Of a DNA stretch of 64,000 bases, positions 5,892-61,203 are shown piece by piece. Under the pieces are notes generated by a model. It did no database searches, was not told the DNA's origin, and saw nothing but the letters and a program-made list of their open reading frames with translations. The stretch covers positions 1,426,001 to 1,490,000 of the forward strand of contig NZ_JAUSXK010000001.1 of NCBI RefSeq assembly GCF_030815955.1, in the 5' to 3' direction. This DNA is from Microbacterium murale (GTDB lineage: Bacteria; Actinomycetota; Actinomycetes; Actinomycetales; Microbacteriaceae). Both the position numbers and the translations under genes were made by a program. Position 1 is the stretch's first letter; each line of letters opens with the position of its first letter.

Positions 5892-5919
5892 CGCTCCTCG
5901 CGAGAGTTCGCGCAGGTGA

Positions 5920-7440: not shown

Positions 7441-7480
7441 CCTCAGCCTCTTTGCGATTGGATGCCGGTCCGAGTGCGGA

Positions 7481-8838: not shown

Positions 8839-8842
8839 GATG

Positions 8843-9760: not shown

Positions 9761-9792
9761 GACACTCCCTCGTTGGTGTTCTCTCACATTAC

Positions 9793-9805
9793 TTGAGAAC
9801 TTCAA
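9793..9805. promoter_or_regulatory. Candidate MarR operator between set A and its regulator
   Basis: The 80-nt divergent gap holds the inverted repeat TTGA-GAACT-TCAA (9793-9805) in an AT-rich patch that contrasts with the surrounding GC-rich DNA. MarR regulators typically bind such short palindromes in the intergenic region next to their own gene. The site would cover the leftward promoter of the SDR gene. Confidence 0.45.
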
Positions 9806-9840
9806 TTATTGGTAGCATCACCGTACTCTAGGATGAATCC

Positions 9841-10302: not shown

Positions 10303-10344
10303 CGACGCCCGGGCCGGGGCCATCTCGGCGGACAGCCGGCTCTC

Positions 10345-11832: not shown

Positions 11833-11860
11833 CGGGTGGTCCTTTCGTTGCTGCAGGGTC

Positions 11861-32750: not shown

Positions 32751-32908
32751 TCATACGGTGATGCTCATCGAGATAGCACTATTTACATAGATATATAGCC
32801 ATAGTCATCACCGGGTCGCAAGCATCGGATCAGCCGAACCCGTTCCGCGTTCCCGGTCAGCGGAAAAAGTCGACGGCCGGCCTCGGCTGCGCTCATACGC
32901 TGATGCTC
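32751..32908. repeat. Direct repeat TCATACGSTGATGCTC in the livG/O-demethylase promoter region
   Basis: TCATACGGTGATGCTC (32751-32766) recurs as TCATACGCTGATGCTC (32893-32908), 15 of 16 identical. Each has a TCA-TACGN-TGA palindromic core, extended to ATCA/TGAT in the first copy. Between them is an AT-rich stretch (about 32768-32800). The gap is divergent: livG leftwards and the O-demethylase rightwards. The likely binder is the IclR protein encoded at 34354. Confidence 0.5.
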
Positions 32909-32929
32909 CACGACAGACGGAGGTCGAAG

Positions 32930-34297
32930 ATGACTGAAACACTTGCCCAGGCGGTCGAACGCGCGGGGAACCCGGTGCAATTCCTGCGCGACCAGGATTG
33001 GCCCGCCTTCACATTCCCGGTAGCCGCGGAGTTCACGAACTGGCGTGACGAGCAGCGCGCGTGGATGCAGTCGGTGGCACTCCTGGATCAGTCGCACCAC
33101 ATGACCCAGCTCTTCCTGGACGGCAGCGATCTGATTCCTCTCCTCGAGTCGATATCGCCCAACACGTTCGCGACATTCCGACCCGGCGTCGCCAAGCAGC
33201 TCATCGCCGTCAACGAGGGCGGCTACCTCATCGGTGACGGCATCCTGTTCTACAACGCGGACGGCCCAGAGGGATTGGTGCTGATCGGGCACCACATCCT
33301 GATCGACTGGGTACGGTTCAACGTCGAGAAGGCCCAGGCCGCGGGACGAGATGTGCGCGCACGCCTCGAGGGCAACTCGAACATGCGCCAAGGCCCACCG
33401 ACCTTCTACCGCTACGAGGTCCAGGGGCCGAATGCCGACTTCGTCATGGAGAAGCTCTTCGGAGGCCCCGCCCCCGACATCAAGTTCTTCCACATCGGCG
33501 AGGTCTCGATCGCCGGTCGCACCGCCAGGGCTCTGCGTCACGGCATGGCCGGCCAACCCGGATTCGAGTTCTACGGGCCGTGGGCCGACCACGAGGTCAT
33601 CGCGGACGCGATCATGGCGGCGGGCGAAGAATTCGATATCCGCCGGGTGGGCGCGAAGGCGTACTCCTCCTCGCCGCTCGAGTCCGGCTGGGTGCCCACT
33701 CCGTTCCCCGCGATCTTCGAGCACGACCTCGCAGAGTATCGGGAGTGGCTACCGGCATCGCGCGCCGGTTCCATCGGCGGTTCGCTGTACTCCACCGACG
33801 TGCGCGACTTCTATCTGACCCCGTTCGATATCGGACTCGGGAAGTCGGTGCGCTTCGATCACGAGTTCCACGGGCGCGCTGCACTCGAGGCGCACGCCGC
33901 GAATCCGCCGCGGCGCAAGGTGACGCTGCTGTGGAACCCGAGCGACGTCGCCGATGTCGTCAAGTCGCAGCTCGAACCCGGCACACCGGCGAAGTTCCTG
34001 GACTTCCCGAAGGCGCGATACGGCTTCTACCAGATGGACGAGGTCGTCCAGGAGGGCCGCCCTGTGGGCATCTCCACAGATGCCGGGTATGTCGCCCACG
34101 ACCAGTTGTACATGTCGCTGGCGACCGTCGACGTGGCGATCAACGATGGCGATACCGTCGAAGTCGTGTGGGGAGAGGATCCCATCTCCCGGAAGGCGGC
34201 CGTCGACGCGAACCATCGGCAGGTGCGGATACGCGCGACTGTGGCGCCGGCTCCCTATCATTCCTTCGCGCGCACGACCTATCGCTCCGACGAATGA
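32930..34297 (+). CDS. LigM/DesA-like THF-dependent aromatic O-demethylase, copy 1
   Basis: The 455-residue protein belongs to the GcvT/aminomethyltransferase fold but of the aryl O-demethylase type: DQSHHM at residues 53-58, LRHGMAGQPGFEFYGP in the middle and PLESGWVPTPFPAIF after it. These enzymes (LigM for vanillate and 3-O-methylgallate, DesA for syringate in Sphingobium SYK-6) move the aromatic methyl to tetrahydrofolate. The ATG at 32930 has GGAGG 7 nt upstream. It is closer to copy 3 (48748-50100) than to copies 2 and 4, judged by shared segments such as KYIDFPKARYG/KFLDFPKARYG. It is divergent from the liv operon and followed by an IclR gene. The substrate is unresolved. Confidence 0.85.
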   Translation: MTETLAQAVERAGNPVQFLRDQDWPAFTFPVAAEFTNWRDEQRAWMQSVALLDQSHHMTQLFLDGSDLIPLLESISPNTFATFRPGVAKQLIAVNEGGYLIGDGILFYNADGPEGLVLIGHHILIDWVRFNVEKAQAAGRDVRARLEGNSNMRQGPPTFYRYEVQGPNADFVMEKLFGGPAPDIKFFHIGEVSIAGRTARALRHGMAGQPGFEFYGPWADHEVIADAIMAAGEEFDIRRVGAKAYSSSPLESGWVPTPFPAIFEHDLAEYREWLPASRAGSIGGSLYSTDVRDFYLTPFDIGLGKSVRFDHEFHGRAALEAHAANPPRRKVTLLWNPSDVADVVKSQLEPGTPAKFLDFPKARYGFYQMDEVVQEGRPVGISTDAGYVAHDQLYMSLATVDVAINDGDTVEVVWGEDPISRKAAVDANHRQVRIRATVAPAPYHSFARTTYRSDE

Positions 34298-39870: not shown

Positions 39871-42225
<2,355 letters not shown>

Positions 42226-45593: not shown

Positions 45594-45614
45594 TCGTGGT
45601 TCCCTCTGGTCGGG

Positions 45615-47207: not shown

Positions 47208-47208
47208 G

Positions 47209-48114
47209 TCACGCCACCCGCGGCCCGGAGTGCTGTGCAAGATCGGCGAGATCCTCGCGCCATGCGGCGTCGATCTGCTCCGGCGACCATCCGCCGTCCT
47301 GGTCCAAGGTCTTGAGCACTGCAGGGTGCGAGTAGAGAGTCAGTCGATCTCCGCCGACCCCGATCGCCTGGCCGGTGACAGCGGCGGATTGATCGGAGGC
47401 CAGCCAGACGATGAGCGGAGCCACATCCTCTGCCGATCCCAGTGCGTGATCACGGCGGTATTCGGAAGGGATCACGCCGGTTTCCACGTAGTCCTCGTAG
47501 ACCTTCGTGTACGCCGGGATCGTGGCGGTCATCGGTGACAGCGCAGTCGGGATGACGGCGTTCACGGTGATCTCCGCCTTGGCGAGTTCCAGCGACCAGG
47601 TGCGTGCCATCGCGACGAGGCCGGCCTTGGCTGCCGCGTAGTTCGTCTGTCCGAAACTTCCGAACTGTCCTGCCGGTGAGCCGATGAGCACGATGCGACC
47701 GCCCTCCCCCTGCTCTCGCATGCCGATCGCAGCGGCGCGACCACAGGTGAACGATCCGCGCAGGTGCGTCTCTGTGACGAGGTCGAAATCGTCGTCCCCC
47801 ATCTTCCAGAGCACGCGGTCCCGAAGCACGCCTGCATTGGCGATGAGGATGTCGATCCGGCCGAACTCCTCCTGGGCGGCGGCGACGAGGGCCTCCGCCG
47901 TCGCGCTCGGGCCCACCGGCGCGATGACGGAGATCGCGCGGCCGCCGGCCTCGCGGATCGCCGTCACAGTCTGCTCAGCGCTCTCAGCATCGACATCGTT
48001 CACGACGACGCATGCCCCGGCTGCGGCGAGCGCGATCGCGTAGGCGCGACCGAGGCTGCGTCCGGCACCGGTGACGATCGCCGACTTGCCATCCAGGCGA
48101 ATCGCGACGCTCAT
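47209..48114 (-). CDS. Short-chain dehydrogenase/reductase, set B
   Basis: The 301-residue SDR has TGAGRSLG, NAGVLRDRVLWKMGDDDFD and SPAGQFGSFGQTNYAAAKAG with the catalytic Tyr and Lys. It is clearly the paralogue of the set A SDR at 8843-9760. The ATG at 48114 overlaps the MaoC stop by 4 nt and it leads into the ligase gene. Predicted role: oxidation of the beta-hydroxyphenylpropionyl-CoA. Confidence 0.8.
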   Translation of the reverse strand: MSVAIRLDGKSAIVTGAGRSLGRAYAIALAAAGACVVVNDVDAESAEQTVTAIREAGGRAISVIAPVGPSATAEALVAAAQEEFGRIDILIANAGVLRDRVLWKMGDDDFDLVTETHLRGSFTCGRAAAIGMREQGEGGRIVLIGSPAGQFGSFGQTNYAAAKAGLVAMARTWSLELAKAEITVNAVIPTALSPMTATIPAYTKVYEDYVETGVIPSEYRRDHALGSAEDVAPLIVWLASDQSAAVTGQAIGVGGDRLTLYSHPAVLKTLDQDGGWSPEQIDAAWREDLADLAQHSGPRVA

Positions 48115-48575
48115 CGGTAGTACCTCAGAACCAGCTCCGCCACGCACGCAGGCTTCTCACTGCCTTCGACGTCGAACACGACGCGAACGATGATCTGCGA
48201 TCCGTCGGCGATCGGCTGGACGGCGAGGACCTCGCCGCGAACACGGATGCGCGAACCGACGGGAACAGGCGCGGGGAAGCGAACCTTGTTCATGCCGTAG
48301 TTCACCCCCATGCTGAACCCGGTCACCTCGAACACCTCGCGCATCAACGGAACGACAAGGCCGAGCGTGAGCATGCCGTGAGCTATCCGCGTTCCGAAGG
48401 GCGTGGCTGCAGCGAAGTCCTCGTCGAGATGAATCGGATTGTCATCGCCGGAGACACGCGCATAAAGGTTGACGTCGTCCTGCGTCACCTCCCGCCACTC
48501 GGAGGGGCCGAATGTGTCGCCCTGGATATCGGAGAGTTCTTCGACCGGTGTGAACAGAGTCGTGGCTGGCGTCAT
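48111..48575 (-). CDS. MaoC-family hydratase, set B
   Basis: The 154-residue hot-dog-fold hydratase carries the Asp-His pair in SGDDNPIHLDEDFA and GTRIAHGMLTLGL. The ATG at 48575 has an AAGGA site. It begins the leftward set B operon: MaoC, SDR, CoA ligase, amidohydrolase, acyl-CoA dehydrogenase, mostly with 4-nt overlaps. Predicted role: hydration of the cinnamoyl-CoA analogue. Confidence 0.8.
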   Translation of the reverse strand: MTPATTLFTPVEELSDIQGDTFGPSEWREVTQDDVNLYARVSGDDNPIHLDEDFAAATPFGTRIAHGMLTLGLVVPLMREVFEVTGFSMGVNYGMNKVRFPAPVPVGSRIRVRGEVLAVQPIADGSQIIVRVVFDVEGSEKPACVAELVLRYYR

Positions 48576-48747: not shown

Positions 48748-50100
48748 TCAGTTCGAGCGATAGTTCTCGCGAGCGAACCTCGAGTACGGGGCGGGTTCGA
48801 CAGCCGCTCGGATCGACACCTGCCGGTGCCGCTCGACGGCCGGCTTCTCCGAGTTCGGCTCTTCGCCCCACACGACGCTCACTTCAGTGCCGGGTGCTGC
48901 AGCGTCCTGGTCAACACTGGCGAGCGACGCGAAGACCTGCTCGTTGGTGATGTACCCGCAGTCATGCGAGATACCCACCGCGCGACCTTCGAGCAGGACA
49001 CGGTCCATCTGATACTGCCCGTAGCGCGCCTTGGGAAAGTCGATGTACTTCGCGGGCACACCTTCTTCCAGCAGCGAACGCTGCGCCGCCGCGACGTCAT
49101 CCGGATTCCAGACGAGGGTCACCTTGACCCGTCGGGGCGCGACGGCGATCCGCTCGAGCGCCTCACGACCGATGAAGTCGTGGTCGAACGCCACGCTGCG
49201 GCCGTATCCCAGGTCGTACGGAGTCAGGTAGTAGTCCTCGACATCATCCGCGTCGAAGCTTCCCGCCAACGAGCCCAACCGTGCCGCGGGGAGCCAGGCG
49301 AGGTAGTCGTCGGCAGCTGGTCCGGTGAAGATCGCCGGTATCGGCGACGGCACCCACGCCGACTCGAGATTGGCCGAGGAGTATGCCTTCGAGCCGACCA
49401 GGACGAGCCCGAACTCTTCGCCGGCCGCGATCAGCGCCTCTCGTATCCGCTCTGCATCCGCCCACGGTCCGAACAGTTCGAATCCAGGTTGACCCGCCAT
49501 ACCGTGGCGCAGTGAACTCACGCGAACGCCCGCGATCTCGAACTCAGCCATGCCGAAGAACCTGGTGGCCGGCACGGGCGCCCCGGTGACCTTCTCCATG
49601 AGCGCCAGCGCGTGGGGCCCCTGCACCTCGAAGCGGTAGAGCTTCGGATCGCCCTCGCGCACCAAGGAGTTGCCGTCACGCTCGAACGTGACATCGTAAT
49701 CGCCGGTCTCGCCGTGGAACTGCAGCCAGTCGATCACCATGTGCCACCCGACCAGGTCGTATACGCCCTGGTCGAGGTGGAAGAGGATGGCGTCACCGAT
49801 CAGGTAGCCCTCGTGATTCACTGCGATGAACTGCTTCGCCGAACCGGCGGGGAACTTTGCGAAGCTGTTCACCGCCACATCCGACAGCAGCCGCTGAGCG
49901 TCCGGACCCGAGATGAACAGATCGGTCATGTGATGCGATTGATCCAGGAGGGCAACGGAGTCCCGCCACGCTCGCTGCTCGGATCGCCAGTTCGAGAACT
50001 CAGGCGTGACCGGGAACACCGTCGGCCGGCCGGGCGCATTCCGCAGCGCGGGCAGCACTCCGCCCGCCTGTGCGATGACATCTGCAGCTGTCTGTGACAT
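48748..50100 (-). CDS. LigM/DesA-like THF-dependent aromatic O-demethylase, copy 3
   Basis: The 450-residue enzyme has DQSHHM at residues 53-58, LRHGMAGQPGFELFGP and NLESAWVPSPIPAIF. It starts at the ATG at 50100 after GGGAG; a longer frame upstream lies in the promoter region. It pairs with copy 1 as a subfamily (both end in YRSN/YRSDE, and share FPKARYG). It is a single-gene unit between a terminator and a divergent LysR gene. The substrate is probably a methoxybenzoate different from that of copies 2 and 4. Confidence 0.85.
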   Translation of the reverse strand: MSQTAADVIAQAGGVLPALRNAPGRPTVFPVTPEFSNWRSEQRAWRDSVALLDQSHHMTDLFISGPDAQRLLSDVAVNSFAKFPAGSAKQFIAVNHEGYLIGDAILFHLDQGVYDLVGWHMVIDWLQFHGETGDYDVTFERDGNSLVREGDPKLYRFEVQGPHALALMEKVTGAPVPATRFFGMAEFEIAGVRVSSLRHGMAGQPGFELFGPWADAERIREALIAAGEEFGLVLVGSKAYSSANLESAWVPSPIPAIFTGPAADDYLAWLPAARLGSLAGSFDADDVEDYYLTPYDLGYGRSVAFDHDFIGREALERIAVAPRRVKVTLVWNPDDVAAAQRSLLEEGVPAKYIDFPKARYGQYQMDRVLLEGRAVGISHDCGYITNEQVFASLASVDQDAAAPGTEVSVVWGEEPNSEKPAVERHRQVSIRAAVEPAPYSRFARENYRSN

Positions 50101-50165
50101 GTGAACTCCCTTGTTATGTCGCCCCGAGTCTACTGAGGTCGTGCTTCTTCTCATCAGCGTTGCGG

Positions 50166-50240: not shown

Positions 50241-51167
50241 ATGATGGACCTGAATCTGGTCAAGGTCTTCGTCGCCATCTACGAAGCGCGAAACCTCACG
50301 ACCGCGGCGCGCAGACTCTTCGTCACCCAACCTGCGGTGAGTCAATCCTTGACCCGGCTGCGCCGTGAACTGGATGACCCCCTGTTTCGCCGCAATGGTC
50401 GATCAATGGATGCTACCCCGCTGGCCGACTCGGTCTACCCCGGTTTTCGGCAGGCGATGGCGGGGATCGATCGAACGCTGGATGCCGTGCATCGATTCGA
50501 TCCGAGCGACTCCACGAGACTCTTCCGCATCGCCCTGTCCGAGCTCGGAGAGATCGGCTGGTTCCCGGCGATCCTCTCCGCCGTGCGCGCAGCAGCGCCG
50601 CACATCCGCCTCGCCGTTGTTGCACTCCAGCCGGCGGAACTGCCGTCGTGGCTGGCCCGCGGGGCGGTGGACCTGGCGATCAGTACAGCGTCGATCCCCG
50701 GCTTCGAGCGCACACTCCTGAAGTCGCAGTCGTACGGTGTCGCGATGTCACGCAGCAGCACGCTGCCGGACATGCTGAGTGTGCGCGAGTATTCGGATGC
50801 AGATCATGTCGTGGTCTCGAGCGACTCGGGGCACGACCAGCTCGAGGCGGCTCAGCGACGCGCCGGCGCGAGCTTCGAGGCATCCGTGATCATCGACCAC
50901 TGGGCGACACTGCCACCCCTGCTGTCAACGCAGCAGAATCTGATAGCCACGGTGCCGGACAGCATCGCCGACGGCTGGGCGGAGACGTGGCCCATCCGCG
51001 TCGGACCTCTTCCGTTCGCGATGCCTCCGGTAGAGGTGCACCTCTACCGTCGTGCGACGACTGTGCACACTGCCGCGCTCGATTGGCTGTCCACGACGGT
51101 CACCGACGCAGTGCGCGGTTCCTCCGGCCGCTTCTTCGCGATTCACGGCGACGCGCGCCAGCCGTGA
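50241..51167 (+). CDS. LysR-family transcriptional regulator
   Basis: The 308-residue LysR protein has the N-terminal helix-turn-helix (NLTTAARRLFVTQPAVSQSLTRL) and a type-2 periplasmic-binding-like effector domain. Starts at 50241 or 50244 are equivalent. It is divergent from O-demethylase copy 3, sharing a dyad-containing promoter, and convergent with folD. It likely activates copy 3 with its substrate or product as effector. Confidence 0.8.
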   Translation: MMDLNLVKVFVAIYEARNLTTAARRLFVTQPAVSQSLTRLRRELDDPLFRRNGRSMDATPLADSVYPGFRQAMAGIDRTLDAVHRFDPSDSTRLFRIALSELGEIGWFPAILSAVRAAAPHIRLAVVALQPAELPSWLARGAVDLAISTASIPGFERTLLKSQSYGVAMSRSSTLPDMLSVREYSDADHVVVSSDSGHDQLEAAQRRAGASFEASVIIDHWATLPPLLSTQQNLIATVPDSIADGWAETWPIRVGPLPFAMPPVEVHLYRRATTVHTAALDWLSTTVTDAVRGSSGRFFAIHGDARQP

Positions 51168-51192: not shown

Positions 51193-52080
51193 TCAGCGGA
51201 TGCTGCGCTCCGCCGCCTCCACGACATTGGCGACCAGCATCGCGCGCGTCATGGGCCCGACGCCGCCCGGGTTGGGTGAGATCCAGCCGGCTGCTTCGGC
51301 CACGGCTGGATCGATGTCCCCCGCGAGCCGCGCCTTCCCCGATTCCGTCGTTCCCACTCGGGTCACGCCGACGTCGAGGACCGCGGCACCTGGTCTGATC
51401 CAGTCCGCCTTCACGAGATGAGGTACCCCGACGGCGGCGACGACTATGTCCGCGCGCCGGACCTCTGCGGCGAGATCCGCCGTGCGGGAGTGCGTCAGTG
51501 TGACGGTGGCGTCGGTACCCTTGCGCGTGAGCAGAAGACCGAGAGGGCGACCTACTGTTATTCCTCTTCCGATGACGGTGACATGCGCACCCTGGAGAGG
51601 CACGTCATAGCGCGTGAGAAGCTCGACGATTCCTGCGGGCGTGCACGGCAGAGGCGCCTCCACGGCAGTGCGAGGGTCGACTCCCAGAACCAGACGTCCG
51701 AGGTTCGTCGGGTGCAGGCCGTCGGCATCCTTCACGGGATCGATCAGTTCGATGATGCGATTCTCGTCGACCCCCTCGGGCAACGGCAGTTGAACGATGA
51801 AACCGGTGACCCTTGCGTCGGCGTTCAATTCGCGGACGGCCGCCTCGATCTCCTCCTGCGTCGCGGTTACGGGCAGCTCGATCTGGATCGATGCGACGCC
51901 GACCTCCGCGCAGTCACGATGCTTGCCCGTCACATACGAGCGGGAGCCCGCATCATCTCCGACGAGCAGAGTTCCCAGCCCGGGAACGATCCCCTGAGCT
52001 GCGAGGCGGCTGACACGTTCGGCCAACTCGTGCTTGATGGCGGCGGCCGTGGCCGCACCGTCCAGTTTCTGCGCAGTCAT
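51193..52080 (-). CDS. folD: Methylenetetrahydrofolate dehydrogenase/cyclohydrolase
   Basis: The 295-residue bifunctional enzyme interconverts methylene-THF, methenyl-THF and formyl-[16 protein letters not shown] carries the catalytic Lys, followed by [20 protein letters not shown] and [11 protein letters not shown]. The ATG at 52080 has no strong ribosome site. In context it converts MetF-derived methylene-THF to the formyl-THF cleaved by PurU. It lies on the same strand and downstream of O-demethylase copy 4, separated by a hairpin. Confidence 0.9.
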
Positions 52081-52174: not shown

Positions 52175-53617
<1,443 letters not shown>

Positions 53618-53633
53618 TCACGCTAGCGAAGAA

Positions 53634-53669
53634 CTTTACCTATGTCCAGACCCTACGTATATAGTGAAG
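53634..53669. promoter_or_regulatory. Imperfect dyad in the O-demethylase 4/galB divergent region
   Basis: An AT-rich patch with CTTTACCTAT on one side and ATATAGTGAAG on the other forms an imperfect inverted repeat around TACGTA. The left arm contains TTACCTAT, which also occurs in the perfect palindrome upstream of metF (38921-38928), so one regulator might see both, although this copy lacks the ATAGGTA partner arm. The pairing is weak. Confidence 0.3.
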
Positions 53670-53733
53670 CGTGACGCAGCCGTCATGAGTCGCCGGTAGA
53701 GTCGGCGCCACGCACCAAGACAGAGGAGTCAGT

Positions 53734-54483
53734 GTGAACGAGAACAGCCTGCTCGTCGTCAGCGCACACGCTGGTGATTTCGTCTGGAGGGCCGGTGGCG
53801 CGATCGCCGCTGCCGCCGACCGCGGCGAACGAGTGGTGGTCGCATGCCTGTCGTACGGCGAACGCGGTGAGTCGGCGAGCCAGTGGCTCGATGGCAAGTC
53901 ACTCGACGAGATCAAGGCGATCCGACGCGAGGAGGCCACTGCGGCGGCAACCGCCCTCGGCGCGGAAGTCGTGTTCTTGGACCTCGGGGACTACCCGCTC
54001 CTCGAATCGGACGAGGCCGTGCGCAAGCTCGTCGATGTGTTCCGCGACGTGAAGCCCTCTGTCGTTCTGACTCATCCCCTCTCGGATCCGTACAACGGAG
54101 ATCATCCCGCTGCCGCCCGCATGGCCCTTCAGGCGCGCATCCTCGCGCAGGCGATCGGGGTGGCGAATTCCGACGGCACTTACCCGACTCGGGACGAGAT
54201 CATCGGAGCACCCCCCGTCTTCTTCTTCGAGCCGCACCAATCCGAGCAGTCCGATTTCAAGCCGACCCTGCTCCTCGACATCACCAGCGCGTTCGAGAAG
54301 AAGCGCGCGGCGATGGAATGTCTTCCTGCGCAGAAGCACATGTGGTCGTACTACACAGACCTTGCAGTGCGCCGCGGCGTGCAGGTCAGGCGCAACGCCG
54401 GCCCCAACCTCGGCCTCCCGCACAACACGATGGGCGAAGCGTACGTGCGCTACTACCCCCAGGTGACGGACGTCCTCGCATGA
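53734..54483 (+). CDS. galB: 4-Oxalomesaconate hydratase (PIG-L/LmbE fold)
   Basis: This 249-residue PIG-L/LmbE-type protein begins with HAGDFVWRAGGAIA, where typical PIG-L deacetylases have HPDDE; the HAxDFVWR form is that of GalB, the hydratase of gallate degradation in Pseudomonas putida. A later metal His is in HPLSDPYNGDHPAA. It would hydrate the enol of 4-oxalomesaconate to 4-carboxy-4-hydroxy-2-oxoadipate. The start is GTG 53734 with AGAGGAG upstream. It is the first gene of a four-gene operon with galC, galD and a VOC dioxygenase, each overlapping the next. Confidence 0.8.
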   Translation: MNENSLLVVSAHAGDFVWRAGGAIAAAADRGERVVVACLSYGERGESASQWLDGKSLDEIKAIRREEATAAATALGAEVVFLDLGDYPLLESDEAVRKLVDVFRDVKPSVVLTHPLSDPYNGDHPAAARMALQARILAQAIGVANSDGTYPTRDEIIGAPPVFFFEPHQSEQSDFKPTLLLDITSAFEKKRAAMECLPAQKHMWSYYTDLAVRRGVQVRRNAGPNLGLPHNTMGEAYVRYYPQVTDVLA

Positions 54484-55184
54484 GTCACGTAGTCGTCACC
54501 GATATCGAGCGCCTCCCCCTCTCGGTGGTCGACGCTTTCGCCGAATTCGGCTCGGCCACTGTGCACGAGGCGATGGGGCGCATCGGGTATCTCGGTGCGG
54601 ACATCAGACCGATCCAGCAGGGAGCGAGGGTCGCCGGCTCCGCCATCACGGTGCTGACCGCCCCAGGCGACAATCTGATGGTTCACGCGGCGATCGAGCA
54701 GTCCCAGCCCGGCGACATCATCATCGTGGCGACCCTGACAGAGTCGCCCTACGGGCACATCGGCGACCTGATGGCCACGCAGATGCACACCCGCGGCGTG
54801 CGGGGCTACGTCACCAACGCCGGCGTGCGCGATGCTCAGGAACTGCGCGAGATGCCCTTCGCGGTGTGGGCCCGATTCGTCAGCGCGGAGGGCACCGTGA
54901 AAGACACCGCGGGATCGGTGAACGTGCCGATCGTCATTGGTTCGACCGTGATCCACCCCGGCGACGTCGTCGTCGCGGACGATGACGGAGTGACGATCGT
55001 GCCGCGCGCGCACGCGGACGAAGCGCTCGAGCTCTCACGCCGACGTGTGCTCAAGGAAGCGGAGAACCGCGCGAAGTACCAGGCGGGAGCGACATCGATG
55101 GATGTCAACGCACTGCGCCCGGTCCTGGACGACCTCGGGGTCTCATTCATCTCCCAGAAGGAGTACGAGGATGAGCGCTGGTGA
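54480..55184 (+). CDS. galC: 4-Carboxy-4-hydroxy-2-oxoadipate aldolase (RraA/LigK fold)
   Basis: The 234-residue RraA-fold aldolase (LigK/GalC type) splits 4-carboxy-4-hydroxy-2-oxoadipate to pyruvate and oxaloacetate. Its GDLMATQMHTRGVRGYVTNAGVRDA carries the active-site Asp and Arg, with the Mg-binding Asp in AGVRD. The ATG at 54480 overlaps the galB stop by 4 nt, and the end overlaps galD by 14 nt. It is the last step before central metabolism in the gallate branch. Confidence 0.85.
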   Translation: MSHVVVTDIERLPLSVVDAFAEFGSATVHEAMGRIGYLGADIRPIQQGARVAGSAITVLTAPGDNLMVHAAIEQSQPGDIIIVATLTESPYGHIGDLMATQMHTRGVRGYVTNAGVRDAQELREMPFAVWARFVSAEGTVKDTAGSVNVPIVIGSTVIHPGDVVVADDDGVTIVPRAHADEALELSRRRVLKEAENRAKYQAGATSMDVNALRPVLDDLGVSFISQKEYEDERW

Positions 55185-56286
55185 GGAGTTCGATGCGGGA
55201 ATCCGATGCATGCTCATGCGCGGGGGAACGTCGAAGGGCGCGTATTTCCTCGCTGATGATCTGCCGGACGATCCCGCATCGCGCGACGAGCTGATCCTCC
55301 GCATCATGGGGAGCCCCGACGCGCGTCAGATCGACGGCATCGGGGGTGCCCATCCCCTCACGAGCAAGGTCGCCGTTGTCTCGCCTTCGACGTCCGCTGA
55401 GGCCGACGTCGACTATCTGTTCCTTCAGGTGGGAGTCGACGACGCCCGCGTGGCGACGACGCAGACCTGCGGCAATCTCCTGGCAGGTGTCGGACCCTTC
55501 GCCGTCGAGCGAGGCCTGGTCGAGGCGCACGAAGGTGAGACACGCGTTCGCATCCGTCTGGTCAACACCGGCGATGACGCACTCGCTTCGTTCACGACCC
55601 GCAATGGATCTCCCCTCTACAGCGGCTCCACCGCCATCGACGGCGTCCCTGGTACGGGCGATCCGATCCGGATCGAGATGCTCCCCGGAGCCCGCGCGCT
55701 CTTCCCCACCGGCAACATCCTCGACCGGATCGACGGCCACGAGGTCACCCTGATCGACAACGGCATGCCGATCGCGCTGATGCGCGCACAGCCGCTGGGC
55801 ATCAGCGGACAGGAGAGCCCGCTCGAGCTCGAGTCCGATCCCACCCTCACCGCTGCCGTGGAACGCATCCGCCGCGCCGCAGGCCAGGCGATGGGGCTCG
55901 GCGACGTCAGCGATCAGACCGTTCCGAAAGTGATACTCGTCTCAGAGCCGCAGCACGGCGGAGCGATCTCGACGAGAGCGTTCATCCCTGCCAGGGTTCA
56001 CACCTCTCTCGGGGTACTCATGGCCGCCTCCGTCGCTGCCGCCGTCCAGATCCCCGGCACTGCGGCCGACGCGGTCGCGCAGCTTCCCGGTTCCGCGCAG
56101 CTCGGCATCGAGCATCCGAGCGGAATCCTCCCGGCCGAGGTGCGTGTCGGCCGGGACGGCGACGGCACGTGGTGGGCGACGTCGACGACGATCCGCACTG
56201 CGCGCAAGCTGTTCGACGGCACCGTCTTTCCTCGCCCTCATTCATCGACCCCCGTGCGCTCTCGCGCAGACAAGGAAGTGCAATGA
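55171..56286 (+). CDS. galD: 4-Oxalomesaconate tautomerase (PrpF fold)
   Basis: The 371-residue PrpF-family isomerase opens with RCMLMRGGTSKGAYFL and carries an active Cys in TQTCGNLLAGV, both GalD/PrpF hallmarks. It converts the keto form of 4-oxalomesaconate to the enol used by GalB. The ATG at 55171 follows GAAGGAG. It overlaps galC and, by 4 nt, the dioxygenase gene. The last 20 residues are rich in Ser, Pro and Arg, and diverge from the fold. Confidence 0.85.
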   Translation: MSAGEEFDAGIRCMLMRGGTSKGAYFLADDLPDDPASRDELILRIMGSPDARQIDGIGGAHPLTSKVAVVSPSTSAEADVDYLFLQVGVDDARVATTQTCGNLLAGVGPFAVERGLVEAHEGETRVRIRLVNTGDDALASFTTRNGSPLYSGSTAIDGVPGTGDPIRIEMLPGARALFPTGNILDRIDGHEVTLIDNGMPIALMRAQPLGISGQESPLELESDPTLTAAVERIRRAAGQAMGLGDVSDQTVPKVILVSEPQHGGAISTRAFIPARVHTSLGVLMAASVAAAVQIPGTAADAVAQLPGSAQLGIEHPSGILPAEVRVGRDGDGTWWATSTTIRTARKLFDGTVFPRPHSSTPVRSRADKEVQ

Positions 56287-57230
56287 CTCACTCATCATCG
56301 TTCGACGTCGCCCATCTCGCCAACGTTGAGCTCCTCACGCCCACGCCCGCGGAAAGCCGGTGGTTCTTCGAAGAACTGTTGGCGATGCGGGTTGTCGCCG
56401 AGCACGGCGACTCGGTCTACCTGCGCACGTGGGACGACTACGAGGTGTACACGATCAAGCTCACCGCCTCGGATGCCGCCGGCGTCGGCCGCACGTCCTA
56501 TCGGGCGTCTTCGCAGGAGGCGCTCGAGCGACGTGTCGCCGCGATCGAGGCGACCGGGCTCGGAAAAGGATGGGTCGATGGCGAGGTCGGCACCGGCCGC
56601 ACTTTCACGTTCACCGACCCGGATGGCCATGACATGGGCATCTACTACGACACCGAGCGCTACGTCGCCACCGACGACAAGCCTGCGCTCAAGAACCAGG
56701 CATCACGATTCCCCGGGCGCGGCGTCAACGCACGCCGCCTCGACCACATCAACTTCCTCGCGAAGGACGTCGAGGCCAACGGGGAGTTCATCGCGACGGC
56801 TCTGGCCGGCCGGGAGAGCGAGCGGATCCGCCAGGACGATGGCAAATTCGCGGCGTGGTGGTTCCATTTCGCGCAGAAGTCGTACGACGTGGTCTACTCC
56901 GACGACTGGACCAAGCACGGCAACCGACTGCACCACATCGCGTTCGCGCCTGACACCCGTGAAGACATCCTGAAGGCTGCCGACATCTTCCTCGAGAACG
57001 GCATCCACATCGAGTCGGGTCCGCACAAGCACGCGATCAACCAGACGTTCTTCCTCTACGTCTGGGAGCCCGGCGGCAACCGGATCGAGTTCGCTCAGGC
57101 CGGTGCGAGACTGCTGCTGGATCCGGATCAGCCCGTCGTCGAATGGTCGCAGGAGGAGCGCAAGAAGGGTCAGGCGTGGGGCATGAAGACGATCGAGTCG
57201 TTCCACACGCACGGGACGCCGGTCAACTGA
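56283..57230 (+). CDS. VOC-fold (type I) extradiol dioxygenase in the gal operon
   Basis: The 315-residue protein has two vicinal-oxygen-chelate modules. The C-terminal one carries the likely Fe or Mn ligands His155 (RLDHINF), His218 (LHHIAF) and Glu269 (GNRIEF), plus a second-sphere His around residue 248-250. Spacing and motifs resemble type I homoprotocatechuate/catechol 2,3-dioxygenases. It overlaps galD by ATGA, so it is cotranslated with gallate-pathway genes. Known gallate and 3-O-methylgallate dioxygenases are LigAB-like type II proteins, so a type I enzyme here would be a replacement. It might also cleave 3-O-methylgallate, protocatechuate or another triol. Confidence 0.75.
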   Translation: MTHSSSFDVAHLANVELLTPTPAESRWFFEELLAMRVVAEHGDSVYLRTWDDYEVYTIKLTASDAAGVGRTSYRASSQEALERRVAAIEATGLGKGWVDGEVGTGRTFTFTDPDGHDMGIYYDTERYVATDDKPALKNQASRFPGRGVNARRLDHINFLAKDVEANGEFIATALAGRESERIRQDDGKFAAWWFHFAQKSYDVVYSDDWTKHGNRLHHIAFAPDTREDILKAADIFLENGIHIESGPHKHAINQTFFLYVWEPGGNRIEFAQAGARLLLDPDQPVVEWSQEERKKGQAWGMKTIESFHTHGTPVN

Positions 57231-57248: not shown

Positions 57249-57287
57249 GTAGGGGGGGTGTGCTCGAGATGAGCACACCCCCCCTAC
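57249..57287. terminator. Bidirectional terminator between the gal and pca operons
   Basis: GTAGGGGGGGTGTGCTC (57249-57265) pairs perfectly with the complementary 17 nt at 57271-57287, leaving a 5-nt loop. It lies between the convergent dioxygenase and pcaC genes. The pcaC stop codon (57284-57286) is inside the right arm. Confidence 0.75.
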
Positions 57288-57673
57288 CCCTGTTCAGAGA
57301 ACACGGCGTCCGCAAGGCGGAAGGCTGTGTTGGCGGCCGGAACGCCCGCGTAGATCGCCGACTGCAGGATCACCTCACGGATCTCATCGACGGTGAGCCC
57401 ATTGCGCAGCGCCGCATGCACGTGCATGACGAACTCCTCGTGATGTCCGAGCGCGATCATCGTTGAAAGCACCGCCACCGATCGGGCGCGACGGTCAAGA
57501 CCGGGGCGACTCCACACATCACCCCAGGCGACGCGGGTGATGAAGTCCTGGAAGTCGCTCGTGAACTCGGTGGTGTTCGCGATCGAACGATCGACGTGCT
57601 CGTCAGAGAGAACCTCGCGGCGCACTTCCATGCCCTGCGCGTATCGCTCGTCGTCAGAGAGTCGTGCGTTCAT
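57284..57673 (-). CDS. pcaC: 4-Carboxymuconolactone decarboxylase
   Basis: The 129-residue enzyme of the AhpD-like fold decarboxylates 4-carboxymuconolactone to beta-ketoadipate enol-lactone. Its VDEIREVILQSAIYAGVPAANTAFRLA segment and GHHEEFVMHV are typical of PcaC. It is a separate gene; many actinobacteria have a fused PcaL instead. Its ATG overlaps the pcaD stop by 4 nt, and its stop lies within the terminator hairpin. Confidence 0.9.
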   Translation of the reverse strand: MNARLSDDERYAQGMEVRREVLSDEHVDRSIANTTEFTSDFQDFITRVAWGDVWSRPGLDRRARSVAVLSTMIALGHHEEFVMHVHAALRNGLTVDEIREVILQSAIYAGVPAANTAFRLADAVFSEQG

Positions 57674-58452
57674 CGTGCGGCCTCCTCGGCGAAGAATGCG
57701 GTCAATACGGATGCCACGGCCTGCGGCTGCTCGGCCGCGGGAAGGTGTGCGGCGTCGGCGATGCGCACCGTCTTTCCGTGCCGCACCCCCGTGGCGATCT
57801 CAGCGGCGGATGATTCAGGGGTCACCTCGTCGTACTCCCCCCACGCCGCGAGCACCGGAGCACTGATCTCACCGAGACGATCGCGCACATCGAACTCTGC
57901 GAGAGCATCGCAGCAGAAGGCGTACCCTGCATCATCTGCGTCGCGGAGAGCATGCAGCAGCCGTCCGGTCAGCACTGGTTCGCGCTCCATCGATCCCGGC
58001 GCGAACCAGCGCTCGGCGGAACCGACGATAAGGGTGCCGGTGCCCATCTGCCGCACCTGCCGCGCGCGACCCTCCCATGCGGCGGCGTCGCCGATCTTCG
58101 CGCCGGAGCACATGATCGCTGCCGCATCGACGAGGCTCGGATGCCGCAGCAGAAGTTCGATCCCGACAGCACCGCCGAGTGAGATGCCGGCATAGCGGAT
58201 GCTGTCGGCGTCGAGGCCGGCGGCGGCATCAGCCACGGCATCCGCCAGTTCTGCGACGGTGAACCCCTCGGTGGGCGCTGGTGCAGTGCCGTGGCCGGGA
58301 AGATCCCAAGCGACGACGCGGTGCGACGTCTGGAGCAGCGGGATGACGTTCTCCCACAGGATGGTGGAGGTACCGAGCGAGGGCCCCAGCAGCAGCAGCG
58401 GGGCGCCGGACGGACCGACCGGCGCGGTCACGGTGATCCTCGGAACGGTCAC
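57670..58452 (-). CDS. pcaD: Beta-ketoadipate enol-lactone hydrolase
   Basis: The 260-residue alpha/beta hydrolase has GISLGGAVG with the nucleophilic Ser, an Asp in AWGEYDEVTP and a His in AAHLPAAEQP. It converts beta-ketoadipate enol-lactone to beta-ketoadipate. The GTG start at 58452 overlaps the pcaB stop (GTGA). It is free-standing and not fused to PcaC. Confidence 0.9.
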   Translation of the reverse strand: MTVPRITVTAPVGPSGAPLLLLGPSLGTSTILWENVIPLLQTSHRVVAWDLPGHGTAPAPTEGFTVAELADAVADAAAGLDADSIRYAGISLGGAVGIELLLRHPSLVDAAAIMCSGAKIGDAAAWEGRARQVRQMGTGTLIVGSAERWFAPGSMEREPVLTGRLLHALRDADDAGYAFCCDALAEFDVRDRLGEISAPVLAAWGEYDEVTPESSAAEIATGVRHGKTVRIADAAHLPAAEQPQAVASVLTAFFAEEAAR

Positions 58453-59789
58453 CGCTCCTCCTCCGACCTGGTGGGCGCGGACGCAAGATGCTCCGCCAGC
58501 CCGAGATAGCCCTCGGGGTCGAGCAGCTCGTCGACGTCGAGGGCCGCACCAGAGTCTCGAACGGCATCTGCGACCAGCGTGTGCAGGTCTTCACCGCCTG
58601 AAGCTGCAGCGACGATTCGAGTCACGGCATCCGTTCCGATCACAGGGGCGAGAGTGATCGAGAGCCGCTCGGCGAGGATGAGCCCGCCGGATACCGCGGC
58701 GTTGCGCGCGATCGCATCATGATCGATGTCGAGGCCGGCGATGAGCTCTGCGGCGAGCGCACTGGCGCCCAGGCTCAGCCGCAGCAGCTCTCGCAGCGTC
58801 TGCCATTCCGCGTGCCAGGCACCATCCGGGCGTTCGTCCACGGCGAGCGCCGAGGCGAGGTGCAAGGTCGCTCCCAGTTGCGGAGCACGAAGTGCGCTGG
58901 AACGGATCAACACGGCAGCCACCGGATTCTGCTTCTGCGGCATGGCGCTGGATCCTCCGCCCGCGCCTTCGGCGAGCTCGCCGATCTCGGTCCGGGCAGC
59001 GGTCGCGACGTCTGCGGCCATCTTCCCGAGGGCATCGAGCGTCTGCACGAGCGCGTCGCCGAGTTCGGTGACCGGCCAGCGAGAGGTGTGCCAGGGCGCC
59101 GAAGGCGCCTCCAGCTTCAGCTCCGCGGCGAATGCCCCGACGAGGCGCGCCGCTGTGTCGGCATCCGATCGTTCGACGAAGGCTGCAAGGGTACCCCCTG
59201 CGCCGGCGAGCTGAGCGGGCAACTGCACGCCGGCAAGGCGCACGAGTGCCCGGGCTACACCCTGCTGCCAGCCGGCGACGCGTGCACCGAGCGTCGTCGG
59301 AACGGCGTGCTGTGTGAGCGTGCGCGCCACGGTGAGGGTGTCTCGCTCCGCGACCGCCAGAGAGCGAAGAGAACGATCGAGCGCGGTGAGGCCGTCGCGG
59401 ATCTCGGCGACTGCGCGCGCGGCGACGAGCATCAAGGCCGAATCGATGATGTCCTGACTGGTCGCACCGCGATGCACCCACTCGGCGGCGTCGTCACCGA
59501 CCACGGCACGGAGCTTTTTCACGAGCGGGATGACGGGATTGCCACCGGCGCGACCGGCAGCCGCCAGATCCGCGACGGAGATGCCGTGCCCCTGCGCGAG
59601 CTCTCCGGCACCCGCCCAGCCGAGCGCCACGCCGATGCTGTCGACGATGGCTTCCGGCGGCGCCCCTACTTCACCCCAGGCACGGGCGAGCGCGATCTCA
59701 ACGGTGACGAGGGCGTCGCATACGACGGCGTCCGATACCGACCCGTCATGTCCGCTCGTGCCGGGAGACAGCAGTCCCTCGTCGATCAT
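58449..59789 (-). CDS. pcaB: 3-Carboxy-cis,cis-muconate cycloisomerase
   Basis: The 446-residue fumarase/aspartase-superfamily enzyme shows the signature GGSSAMPQKQNPVA. It makes 4-carboxymuconolactone from 3-carboxymuconate. The ATG at 59789 is placed 4 nt after AAGGAG; a GTG at 59792 is the alternative. Both overlap pcaG. The start and size fit PcaB rather than argininosuccinate lyase, and the pca context settles it. Confidence 0.9.
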   Translation of the reverse strand: MIDEGLLSPGTSGHDGSVSDAVVCDALVTVEIALARAWGEVGAPPEAIVDSIGVALGWAGAGELAQGHGISVADLAAAGRAGGNPVIPLVKKLRAVVGDDAAEWVHRGATSQDIIDSALMLVAARAVAEIRDGLTALDRSLRSLAVAERDTLTVARTLTQHAVPTTLGARVAGWQQGVARALVRLAGVQLPAQLAGAGGTLAAFVERSDADTAARLVGAFAAELKLEAPSAPWHTSRWPVTELGDALVQTLDALGKMAADVATAARTEIGELAEGAGGGSSAMPQKQNPVAAVLIRSSALRAPQLGATLHLASALAVDERPDGAWHAEWQTLRELLRLSLGASALAAELIAGLDIDHDAIARNAAVSGGLILAERLSITLAPVIGTDAVTRIVAAASGGEDLHTLVADAVRDSGAALDVDELLDPEGYLGLAEHLASAPTRSEEER

Positions 59790-60385
59790 CACTCTCCTTG
59801 ATCGCCCTCCGCGGCGCCTGCGAACCGGAGGAAGACAGTCTCGTTCTGCCCCTGCAGGCGGATCTCCTGGTGGAGGTATCCGTTCGGCAGACGTGTTGCG
59901 ATGAGCGTAGCGCGCTCCTCCTCGGTCAAGGACGACAACAGCGGGTCCGCGGCGAGCGCAGCCTCGTCGTCCGGCAGATAGATGCGGGTGTGCAGCTTGT
60001 CCGGCAGACCCCTGGCGTAGACGATGGTCGCGAAGAACGCGGCATGACCGGTGCCGGCGCCGGGGTTGCGCGTCCAGAACTCCCAGTGACCCTCGTCATC
60101 GGTGAAAGTGCGGCCGTATCCGGTGAAGCTGTGATCGTCGCGCCGGAAGCTGCCGCGAGCGCGCGGCACTTCCCCGTCGGCATCGCGGCTCCAGATCTCG
60201 ACGATCGAGTCCGGCACCGCTGCGCCATTGCCGTCGAGCACCCGTCCGGAGAGCACGATCGCACCGGGGCTGTGCGGGAAGGCGACCTGGTTCATCTTCT
60301 CGAACTCGGTGCCGTAGGCGAAGAAGGGGCCGACAGTCTGTCCGGCTGTCGGCTGGTGGGTCCTGGGGGCGGTCGGCGCAGGCAT
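59789..60385 (-). CDS. pcaG: Protocatechuate 3,4-dioxygenase, alpha subunit
   Basis: The 198-residue intradiol dioxygenase alpha subunit has TVGPFFAYG and DSIVEIWSRDADGE, and HTRIYLPDDE near the end; it keeps the fold but lacks the full Fe-ligand set, as usual for alpha subunits. The ATG at 60385 overlaps the pcaH stop by 4 nt. Confidence 0.9.
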   Translation of the reverse strand: MPAPTAPRTHQPTAGQTVGPFFAYGTEFEKMNQVAFPHSPGAIVLSGRVLDGNGAAVPDSIVEIWSRDADGEVPRARGSFRRDDHSFTGYGRTFTDDEGHWEFWTRNPGAGTGHAAFFATIVYARGLPDKLHTRIYLPDDEAALAADPLLSSLTEEERATLIATRLPNGYLHQEIRLQGQNETVFLRFAGAAEGDQGE

Positions 60386-61203
60386 CAGTGGTCTCCCTCT
60401 TCGGACTCGAACCAGGTGGCATCCGGGCCGTCTACGACGATGTCCCACTCATAACCCATGGAGAACTCCGGCACGGTGTAGTCGTGGTTGTAGCGTGCGA
60501 TGAGATTGTCCCGATCCCTCTGACGCGGGATCGTATTGTAGATCGGATCAAGTGCGAACAGCGGATCGCTGGGGAAGTACATCTGCGTGATGTTGCGCTG
60601 CGTGAAGCCCGTGCCGAACACCGAGAAGTGGATGTGCGCTGGGCGCCACGCGTTGACGTGGTTCTTCCAGGGGTACGGGCCCGGCTTTATGGTCGTGAAC
60701 TTGTACGCGCCATCATCATCGGTCACGATGCGCCCGGCACCGGTGAAGTTCGGATCGAGCGGTGCCGGATGCTGGTCCCGCTGATGGATGTAGCGTCCGG
60801 CGGCGTTCGCCTGCCAGATCTCCAGCAACTGGTTGCGGATCGGACGACCCCATGAGTCGAGGAGACGGCCCTGCACGGTGATGCGTTCTCCGAGCGGCTC
60901 GCCGGAATGCTGCAGCGTGAGGTCGGCTTCGATCGCCGCGACGTCGCGCTGCCCGTAGGCGGGCGACCAGAGTTCGATCGTCTCAGGGTCGACGAGCTTC
61001 GGGTTCTTCGTCGGATGCCGCAACACACTGGATCGGTACGGGGCGAAGTCGCGCGTGGTGCGATCGACATGCTCGCCCCGCGCCTCAGCTTCCGCTGCGC
61101 TGCGATGCGCTTCGGAGATCTCCTCGCTGATCTGCTGCTGTGTCGGCATGTCTGGTGATGCGAGCAGACTCTCGGGGGCTGCTGCCGATGAATCGGTGGT
61201 CAT
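60385..61203 (-). CDS. pcaH: Protocatechuate 3,4-dioxygenase, beta subunit
   Basis: The 272-residue catalytic beta subunit cleaves protocatechuate to 3-carboxymuconate. Iron-ligand motifs are visible: a Tyr in GRYIHQRDQ, a Tyr in KPGPYPWKNH and His residues in RPAHIHFSVFG. The ATG at 61203 follows AAGGAG. It is the first of the five leftward genes pcaHGBDC, ending in the shared terminator. pcaIJ and pcaF are not in the window. Confidence 0.9.
   Translation of the reverse strand: MTTDSSAAAPESLLASPDMPTQQQISEEISEAHRSAAEAEARGEHVDRTTRDFAPYRSSVLRHPTKNPKLVDPETIELWSPAYGQRDVAAIEADLTLQHSGEPLGERITVQGRLLDSWGRPIRNQLLEIWQANAAGRYIHQRDQHPAPLDPNFTGAGRIVTDDDGAYKFTTIKPGPYPWKNHVNAWRPAHIHFSVFGTGFTQRNITQMYFPSDPLFALDPIYNTIPRQRDRDNLIARYNHDYTVPEFSMGYEWDIVVDGPDATWFESEEGDH

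What the first reader, a model, noticed from the sequence alone, without database searches (positions are those of the whole stretch)
56283..57230. Type I (VOC) extradiol dioxygenase cotranslated with galBCD: a possible new gallate or 3-O-methylgallate ring-cleavage enzyme
Seen: galB, galC, galD and a two-module VOC dioxygenase overlap in series, with intact metal ligands His155, His218 and Glu269. No LigAB-type (type II) dioxygenase gene is present in the window. Established: known gallate dioxygenase (GalA, DesB) and 3-O-methylgallate dioxygenase (DesZ) are type II enzymes, while VOC dioxygenases act on catechols and homoprotocatechuate. Inference: a type I enzyme has replaced the type II one for gallate or 3-O-methylgallate. 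If true, this is a non-orthologous replacement in a central lignin pathway.
Basis: partly seen in the sequence, partly recalled or inferred. Interest (0 to 1): 0.85.

Follow-up and report, generated by a model that had tools for sequence, protein, structure and literature searches.

The report
Unrecognised type I gallate ring-opening enzyme
A bacterium appears to open the ring of gallate, a breakdown product of lignin and tannin, with an enzyme from a different protein family than the gallate-opening enzymes described in the papers seen here, and the same gene partnership recurs in several bacterial phyla.

Summary
A 315-aa VOC (type I) extradiol dioxygenase overlaps galD in a galB-galC-galD-VOC row, divergent from a LigM 3-O-methylgallate demethylase. 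The complete 4.11 Mb genome has no LigB-domain (type II) match.

Comparison widens it. Of 24 genomes with the OMA tautomerase GalD (among 396 of the order), 17 have this VOC, and the 7 without it all have a strong LigB; 9 have VOC and no LigB. The VOC sits with gal genes in Actinomycetota, Alpha- and Gammaproteobacteria, Chloroflexota and Thermus, in several gene orders, once beside a tannase. Some relatives show no gal genes in view, and some genomes carry both dioxygenase types.

These proteins form one clade that keeps the metal ligands but has Tyr at the catalytic His200 position, plus Arg226 and Arg276. A Bacillota sister branch (PDB 9wgj) shares the Tyr, not the two Arg.

Best reading: a type I gallate dioxygenase making 4-oxalomesaconate, a non-orthologous replacement of GalA/DesB, now labelled 'catechol 2,3-dioxygenase' or 'VOC family protein'. 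No activity is shown. Seven gallate-directed searches of an open-access library listed no type I gallate dioxygenase; subscription papers were not searchable.

The parts
56283..57230 (+). VOC (type I) extradiol dioxygenase, proposed gallate dioxygenase, 315 aa; ligands H155, H218, E269; Y201 at the His200 position; R226 and R276
55171..56286 (+). galD, 4-oxalomesaconate tautomerase (NF033377 over cut-off)
54480..55184 (+). galC/ligK, 4-carboxy-4-hydroxy-2-oxoadipate aldolase (NF006731 over cut-off; TIGR02798 under its cut-off)
53734..54483 (+). galB, PIG-L-family 4-oxalomesaconate hydratase (GTG start); named from its neighbours and relatives, no dedicated model matched
53579..53733 (.). divergent intergenic region, presumed promoters of ligM and galBCD-VOC (inference)
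52175..53578 (-). ligM, vanillate/3-O-methylgallate O-demethylase (NF047885, 886 bits over 580)
51193..52080 (-). folD, methylenetetrahydrofolate dehydrogenase/cyclohydrolase, presumably for the methyl group removed by LigM
50241..51167 (+). LysR-family regulator
48748..50154 (-). DesA/LigM-type THF O-demethylase, nearest DesA (552 bits, cut-off 800, not met)
40819..42225 (+). second ligM (NF047885, 862 bits over 580)
32903..34297 (+). DesA/LigM-type THF O-demethylase (DesA 475 bits, cut-off 800, not met)
57284..61203 (-). pcaC, pcaD, pcaB, pcaG, pcaH (C, G and H over their cut-offs, D and B under): protocatechuate 3,4-cleavage branch, presumably the outlet for vanillate-derived protocatechuate

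Best explanation
The gene encodes a type I (VOC-fold) gallate dioxygenase, a non-orthologous replacement of GalA/DesB. Pathway: syringate goes to 3-O-methylgallate and then gallate through the THF demethylases. Gallate binds Fe(II) or Mn(II) (His155, His218, Glu269) through two neighbouring hydroxyls, O2 is added, and the ring opens beside C4 to give 4-oxalomesaconate (OMA). GalD, GalB and GalC then give oxaloacetate and pyruvate. Shown: gene identity, aligned metal ligands, gene row, no LigB match in the genome, and recurrent linkage to OMA genes. Inferred: the substrate, the product and the metal. Also inferred: because all three hydroxyls of gallate are adjacent, intradiol and extradiol opening beside C4 give the same product. 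That may be why this clade can do without His200, which favours the extradiol outcome in HPCD. Arg276 and Arg226, in the gal-linked branch and nearly absent from the sister branch, are candidates for binding the carboxylate.
For: Gene row and overlaps; GalC, GalD and LigM over their cut-offs; no LigB in the genome. Order sample, 24 GalD genomes: 17 with VOC; the 7 without all have LigB at E 1.2e-69 or better; 9 of the 17 have no LigB match. Class sample, 21 GalD genomes at 437 bits or more: VOC directly beside GalD (34-151 bases between matches) in 13, LigB within 3.3 kb in 4, both in none (the two samples share some genomes). Actinobacterial loci with at least 78% identity: 44 of 48 have a gal gene within 8 kb. 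Elsewhere: Neorhizobium VOC-B-C-D, Agrobacterium B-VOC-C-D-tannase, Thioclava, A. vitis, Rhizobium, Roseibium, A. tumefaciens of rose, Paracoccaceae, Pantoea, Thermus oshimai VOC..PIG-L-GalC, Chloroflexota, and a 70% clade with GalD, an amidohydrolase and GalC. Y201, R226, R276 in 112 of 112 locus sequences.
Against: No assay. 13 Microvirga loci and one Nitratireductor have no gal gene within the flanks held. Of 14 plasmid loci that I opened and that bear the signature, 4 show no gal gene in view (Roseomonas, one Pantoea piersonii, Pantoea At-9b, Chimaeribacter) and Methylobacterium only GalC 7 kb away. Two genomes of the order, G409 and G448, have signature copies with no gal gene seen about 5 kb either side. 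Roseomonas has VOC beside LigAB. G421 has LigB, GalD and VOC together, and 6 of 17 VOC+GalD genomes have a strong LigB. G252 has GalD and neither. The T. oshimai cluster has a 4-hydroxybenzoate 3-monooxygenase and an aldehyde dehydrogenase and no annotated GalD, which would suit protocatechuate. The Bacillota sister branch shares Tyr201 and is mostly annotated as catechol dioxygenase, so Tyr201 alone does not mean gallate.
Confidence: 0.78

Rival explanations
1. It is a 3-O-methylgallate dioxygenase (DesZ-like function), giving CHMOD or 2-pyrone-4,6-dicarboxylate, which a hydrolase turns into OMA.
For: The row lies in an O-demethylation island; 3MGA ring opening also leads to OMA (PMC6888825, passages). 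One relative, L206, has an amidohydrolase about 4 kb from the VOC with weak similarity to 4-sulfomuconolactone hydrolase (198 bits, cut-off 500), which could act on a lactone.
Against: LigM, which makes gallate from 3MGA, is divergently adjacent. The L206 amidohydrolase has no match in this genome (no positive control). The Agrobacterium and Thioclava cassettes show no O-demethylase, and the former has a tannase.
Confidence: 0.1
2. It cleaves protocatechuate (4,5 type), and GalBCD act as the lower protocatechuate pathway.
For: The same lower-pathway steps serve protocatechuate 4,5-cleavage (PMC6888825, passages; PMC5065237, start of abstract in the listing). In Thermus oshimai a relative lies near a 4-hydroxybenzoate 3-monooxygenase and an aldehyde dehydrogenase.
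Against: A pcaGHBCD set lies directly downstream. Protocatechuate 4,5-cleavage also uses LigC and LigI (PMC6888825); none was seen in the row, though LigC was not searched genome-wide.
Confidence: 0.06
3. It is a catechol-type meta-cleavage enzyme, as databases name it, and sits in the gal row by chance or for a side substrate.
For: Best NCBIfam model is catechol 2,3-dioxygenase TIGR03211, 303 bits; many relatives are named catechol 2,3-dioxygenase. The T. thermophilus HB8 relative lies beside aldolase and acetaldehyde dehydrogenase genes of a catechol meta pathway.
Against: Under the 320.2 cut-off. The HB8 protein and AphC fall outside the clade and have His201 and Tyr276. The clade is linked to GalC/GalD in several gene orders and phyla.
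Confidence: 0.05

Closest known systems
GalA (P. putida), DesB (SYK-6): gallate dioxygenases, type II, LigB superfamily
   Same: Proposed reaction (gallate to OMA); pathway neighbours of the GalB, GalC, GalD kind
   Different: Unrelated fold: this protein has no LigB domain and matches Glyoxalase/VOC
AphC (Rhodococcus, PDB 7q2a) and 3lm4 (RHA1)
   Same: VOC fold, top Foldseek hits at 36% identity, same aligned metal ligands
   Different: AphC falls outside the clade, with His for Tyr201 and Tyr for Arg276; it was solved with 4-ethylcatechol
HPCD/MndD homoprotocatechuate 2,3-dioxygenases (Brevibacterium, Arthrobacter)
   Same: Fold, metal ligands, Tyr259 and His250 at the Tyr257 and His248 positions
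   Different: His200 is Tyr201; the aligned Arg243 and Arg293 are Ser245 and Gly296 (HPCD numbers recalled)
PDB 9wgj, named 'Catechol 1,2-dioxygenase', identical over 310 aa to a Geobacillus zalihae protein annotated catechol 2,3-dioxygenase
   Same: Nearest solved structure by sequence; shares Tyr201; sister branch
   Different: Gly51, Lys151, Met226, Ser248, Tyr276 instead of Asp, Arg, Arg, His, Arg; no paper found
PcaA, single-chain type II protocatechuate 4,5-dioxygenase of Pseudarthrobacter (PMC8431788, passages)
   Same: Actinobacterial extradiol enzyme that also turns gallate into 4-oxalomesaconic acid
   Different: Type II; described as highly specific for protocatechuate

Membership tests
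Type I (VOC) extradiol dioxygenases | VOC/glyoxalase fold, two modules | tested here: met
   PF00903 2.5e-12 for the C-terminal module; model pLDDT 81.7 with a repeated module pattern, Foldseek hits along the whole chain
Type I (VOC) extradiol dioxygenases | 2-His-1-carboxylate metal site | tested here: met
   H155, H218, E269 aligned and conserved
Type I (VOC) extradiol dioxygenases | Second-shell catalytic His (HPCD His200) | tested here: not met
   Tyr201 in 112 of 112 clade members plus 9wgj; His in 14 of 14 others
Catechol 2,3-dioxygenase equivalog TIGR03211 | Score over the curated cut-off of 320.2 | tested here: not met
   303.2 bits
HpaD equivalog TIGR02295 | Score over the curated cut-off of 321.4 | tested here: not met
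   178.1 bits
Type II gallate dioxygenases (GalA/DesB) | LigB domain PF02900 | tested here: not met
   No PF02900 match in the protein or the genome
Gallate dioxygenase as a function | Gallate + O2 to 4-oxalomesaconate | not testable with these tools
   Needs an assay; genetic context only
Gallate pathway locus | OMA tautomerase, hydratase and CHA aldolase with a ring-opening enzyme | tested here: met
   GalD and GalC over cut-off, PIG-L GalB by position, overlapping genes

The most novel reading that the evidence does not exclude
A type I gallate dioxygenase family, undescribed in the searches made here, occurs in at least five lineages (Actinomycetota, Alpha- and Gammaproteobacteria, Chloroflexota, Deinococcota). 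It has Tyr in place of the catalytic His otherwise conserved in the type I enzymes compared, and works without it because opening gallate's symmetric triol beside C4 gives OMA whether the chemistry is formally intradiol or extradiol.
Probability: 0.4. Interest if true: 0.85.

Novelty: new variant of a known kind. Interest (0 to 1): 0.72.

Why it matters
Gallate is a ring-opening intermediate of syringyl lignin and hydrolysable tannin catabolism, and gallate dioxygenases are filed under the LigB superfamily in the literature seen (AromaDeg, PMC4250580, passages). If this clade is a gallate dioxygenase, genomes that look unable to open gallate (9 of 24 GalD genomes in the order sample) are able to, and genes annotated catechol 2,3-dioxygenase or VOC family protein need renaming. 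It would also be a natural test of how type I dioxygenases work without His200, and it offers a single-gene enzyme for lignin conversion.

Tried and rejected
Bacillota branch as PheB: the G. stearothermophilus PheB (PMC2590616, passages) has 304 aa and a different N-terminus from 9wgj, so it was not taken as the same protein; the gene context of the Bacillota branch could not be reached. Tyr201 as a gallate marker: rejected, because the Bacillota branch shares it. R276 and R226 separate the two branches better, but are not exclusive: among the 14 His-type rows 1 has Arg276 and 4 have Arg226. 'No genome has both types near GalD': true for the class sample only; G421 breaks it. LigB search by tblastn: most of its LigB queries were wrong-frame ORFs, so LigB statements rest on the PF02900 searches. 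Fold of the promoter region was no better than shuffles (z -0.25); one 8-nt inverted repeat there was not pursued. 9wgj did not appear among the 50 Foldseek rows shown. One search stopped with an error after its main table, so its last lists were not printed.

Rows dropped: tblastn hits covering 40% or less of a query; VOC pieces spanning under about 200 residues and identical sequences (154 to 123 sequences); tree thinning (127 to 42 rows); the tree has 51 rows that I chose. The search for related loci kept the best 80 of 93 relatives; the homologue list shows the best 120 of 7142. Gene lists are mechanical ORFs named by eye. The PLSDB gene table of the plasmid regions is incomplete by its own description. 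Of the plasmid records matched (73, 77) I opened 16.

Full report
Observation. The ORF at 56283-57230 (+) codes for 315 aa from an ATG. It closes a row of four overlapping genes: galB 53734-54483 (PIG-L, GTG start), galC 54480-55184, galD 55171-56286 and the VOC gene. GalC and GalD pass NCBIfam cut-offs for 4-carboxy-4-hydroxy-2-oxoadipate aldolase (NF006731; not TIGR02798) and 4-oxalomesaconate tautomerase (NF033377); both were scanned one codon short of the start. GalB has no dedicated model and is named from position and relatives. Divergent from the row is a LigM over the cut-off for vanillate/3-O-methylgallate O-demethylase, followed by folD. A second LigM and two DesA-like demethylases (under the DesA cut-off) lie within 21 kb, with purU and a methylenetetrahydrofolate-reductase-like gene. 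A protocatechuate 3,4-cleavage set follows downstream; pcaC, pcaG and pcaH are over their cut-offs, pcaB and pcaD under.

Genome. The window lies in a complete single-contig genome of 4,111,363 bases. PF02900 (LigB) has no match; the control search rang in 4 of 14 reference genomes. PF07746 (LigA) also has none, but its control was silent. Three other VOC dioxygenase genes occur elsewhere in the genome at 29 to 34% identity.

The protein. Pfam gives Glyoxalase for the C-terminal module. It falls short of both catechol 2,3-dioxygenase (303 of 320 bits) and HpaD (178 of 321). An AlphaFold2 model from 18 sequences has mean pLDDT 81.7; Foldseek puts the RHA1 enzyme and AphC first (36% identity), then catechol 2,3-dioxygenases and HPCD. 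The ligands align at His155, His218 and Glu269; Asn157, Trp193, His250 and Tyr259 match HPCD residues.

A residue that sets it apart. Residue 201 aligns with HPCD His200 and XylE His199 (numbers recalled). It is Tyr in 112 of 112 distinct relatives gathered from loci and in PDB 9wgj, and His in 14 of 14 others, including AphC, XylE, MndD and the genome's own paralogs. A review of calculations gives Tyr257, His200 and His248 control over extradiol against intradiol outcome (PMC6308299, one passage; the enzyme is not named in the passage seen and is taken to be HPCD), and mutants lacking the His are slower (PMC13383722, passage). That an HPCD His200 variant performs intradiol cleavage is recalled; only the title of the underlying paper was seen in a reference list.

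Phylogeny. In a 51-row maximum-likelihood tree the Tyr201 proteins form one clade (bootstrap 99, SH-aLRT 96). It holds a Bacillota branch with 9wgj (100/99) and the gal-linked lineages; the branch that unites the latter is weakly supported (68/75), though in a quicker 42-row tree they were one group beside 9wgj (SH-aLRT 96). The gal-linked lineages share Asp51, Arg151, Arg152, Arg226 and Arg276: 112 of 112 for the four Arg, 111 of 111 for Asp51. The 57 Bacillota rows (56 proteins plus 9wgj, which repeats one) have Tyr276 in 57, Lys151 in 51 and Asn226 in 48. Among the 14 His-type rows 1 has Arg276 and 4 Arg226. T. thermophilus HB8 and Rhodococcus PD04 enzymes, beside catechol meta-pathway genes, fall outside with His201 and Tyr276. 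Arg276 and Arg226 are therefore candidates for holding the carboxylate, which catechol lacks; this is inference.

Linkage. Of 80 loci from named genomes (best 80 of 93), those with at least 78% identity have a gal gene within 8 kb in 44 of 48 cases, and a gal gene or a demethylase in 47 of 48; 3 of 3 at 60 to 78%; 15 of 29 below 60%. The 14 without are 13 Microvirga and one Nitratireductor; some loci have short flanks. I opened 16 plasmid regions, 14 of which bear the signature. Of these 14, 9 have at least two gal-type genes, Methylobacterium has GalC alone 7 kb away, and 4 have none in view. The cassette is galB-VOC-galC-galD in Agrobacterium (followed by a PF07519 tannase at 437.9 bits), Thioclava, Rhizobium, A. 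vitis and, with a small ORF between, Paracoccaceae; VOC-galB-galC-galD in Roseibium; galC-galD..VOC in A. tumefaciens of rose; VOC near galB-galC-galD in one Pantoea plasmid; VOC with PIG-L and GalC in Thermus oshimai. In a 70% clade GalB's place is taken by an Amidohydro_2 protein (likeness to LigJ is recalled, no NCBIfam match) while GalC, GalD and VOC stay. Against: Roseomonas has VOC beside LigAB and no gal genes in view; one Pantoea piersonii plasmid, Pantoea At-9b and Chimaeribacter and genomes G409 and G448 show none; and T. oshimai has a 4-hydroxybenzoate 3-monooxygenase and an aldehyde dehydrogenase nearby and no annotated GalD, which would suit protocatechuate.

Complementation. Class sample (296 genomes): 33 have an NF033377 match at 1e-60 or better; 21 reach 437 bits. 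Of these 21, 13 have the VOC directly beside GalD (34-151 bases between matches), 4 have LigB within 3.3 kb, none has both so; of the other 4, G131 and G199 have a strong LigB on another contig, G250 a weaker distant one, G252 neither. Of the 13 with VOC, 3 have no LigB match, 9 a weaker one (1e-30 to 1e-34) and G209 a strong one on another contig. Order sample (396 genomes, sharing some with the first): GalD at 1e-100 in 24, 11 of them over the curated cut-off and the rest at 428 to 438 bits; VOC at 1e-90 in 21; both in 17; Fisher p = 7e-21, not corrected for relatedness. All 7 genomes with GalD and no VOC have LigB at 1.2e-69 or better; their best VOC-type matches are at most 33% identical. 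Of the 17 with both GalD and VOC, 9 have no LigB, 2 a weak one and 6 a strong one; in G421 LigB, GalD and VOC lie together. Of the 4 with VOC and no GalD, G653 has GalC beside it, G659 demethylases, G409 and G448 neither.

Mechanism. In SYK-6, syringate goes through DesA and LigM to gallate, which DesB opens to OMA (PMC6888825, passages). Gallate has three adjacent hydroxyls. If two chelate the metal, the bond beside C4 lies between two oxygenated carbons whichever way it is counted, so formally intradiol and extradiol opening there give the same 4-carboxy-2-hydroxyhexadienedioate, the enol of OMA. This follows from the structure of gallate and is not taken from a paper. A cut at C2-C3 would give an aldehyde that GalD, GalB and GalC are not expected to use. 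A His that enforces extradiol cleavage would thus matter less for gallate than for catechols; the Tyr in the Bacillota branch, whose substrate I could not establish, is a difficulty for that idea.

Literature. Gallate dioxygenases are placed in the LigB superfamily (PMC4250580) and DesB is type II (PMC3962378) (passages). Of ten searches of an open-access library, seven were directed at gallate or syringate; their listings named no type I gallate dioxygenase. The other three concerned His200, 9wgj and PheB. Of ten papers I saw passages only, of none the whole text. Subscription papers and preprints were not searchable, so prior publication cannot be excluded. 9wgj shows that a relative has been crystallised.

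Verdict. The finding stands and is larger than described: a conserved, mostly gal-linked VOC clade, very probably a type I gallate dioxygenase, without biochemical proof.

Noticed in passing
window 32903-53578: Four tetrahydrofolate O-demethylase paralogs (two LigM over cut-off, two DesA-like under it) with purU, a MetF-like gene, folE, folD and a MetE-like protein (35233-36345): a methoxy-carbon island.
   Followed up: partly
window 43546-48575: Acyl-CoA dehydrogenase, amidohydrolase, CoA ligase, SDR and MaoC-type genes, like a CoA-dependent hydroxycinnamate (sinapate/ferulate) side-chain pathway that could feed syringate; the comparison with cou/phd genes is recalled.
   Followed up: partly
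L183 (Agrobacterium tumefaciens plasmid, walnut) 7252-12623: galB-VOC-galC-galD followed by a tannase, on a plasmid typed conjugative from a walnut isolate: a possible tannin-use trait.
   Followed up: partly
L064:9153-9986, L183:1414-2301, L184:3903-4781, L185:6190-7065, L186:6846-7904, L221:376-1260, L229:534-1409: A DUF1932/6-phosphogluconate-dehydrogenase-like protein recurs beside VOC or gal-VOC cassettes in Proteobacteria; its role in the pathway is unknown.
   Followed up: no
L205, L206, L207: In the roughly 70% clade an amidohydrolase stands where the PIG-L hydratase GalB is elsewhere, perhaps a second swap within the same pathway.
   Followed up: partly
L184 (Roseomonas mucosa plasmid) 6046-8963: LigA, LigB, an alpha/beta hydrolase and the VOC form one row, so both dioxygenase types sit in one cluster; the reason is unclear.
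   Followed up: no
L219 (Thermus oshimai plasmid) 4342-12355: VOC with PIG-L and GalC genes, plus an aldehyde dehydrogenase and a 4-hydroxybenzoate 3-monooxygenase: this relative may act on protocatechuate.
   Followed up: no
L210 (G252), GalD near 9.7 kb: A GalD-like gene with neither the VOC nor LigB found in the genome; its neighbours look unrelated to gallate by eye.
   Followed up: partly
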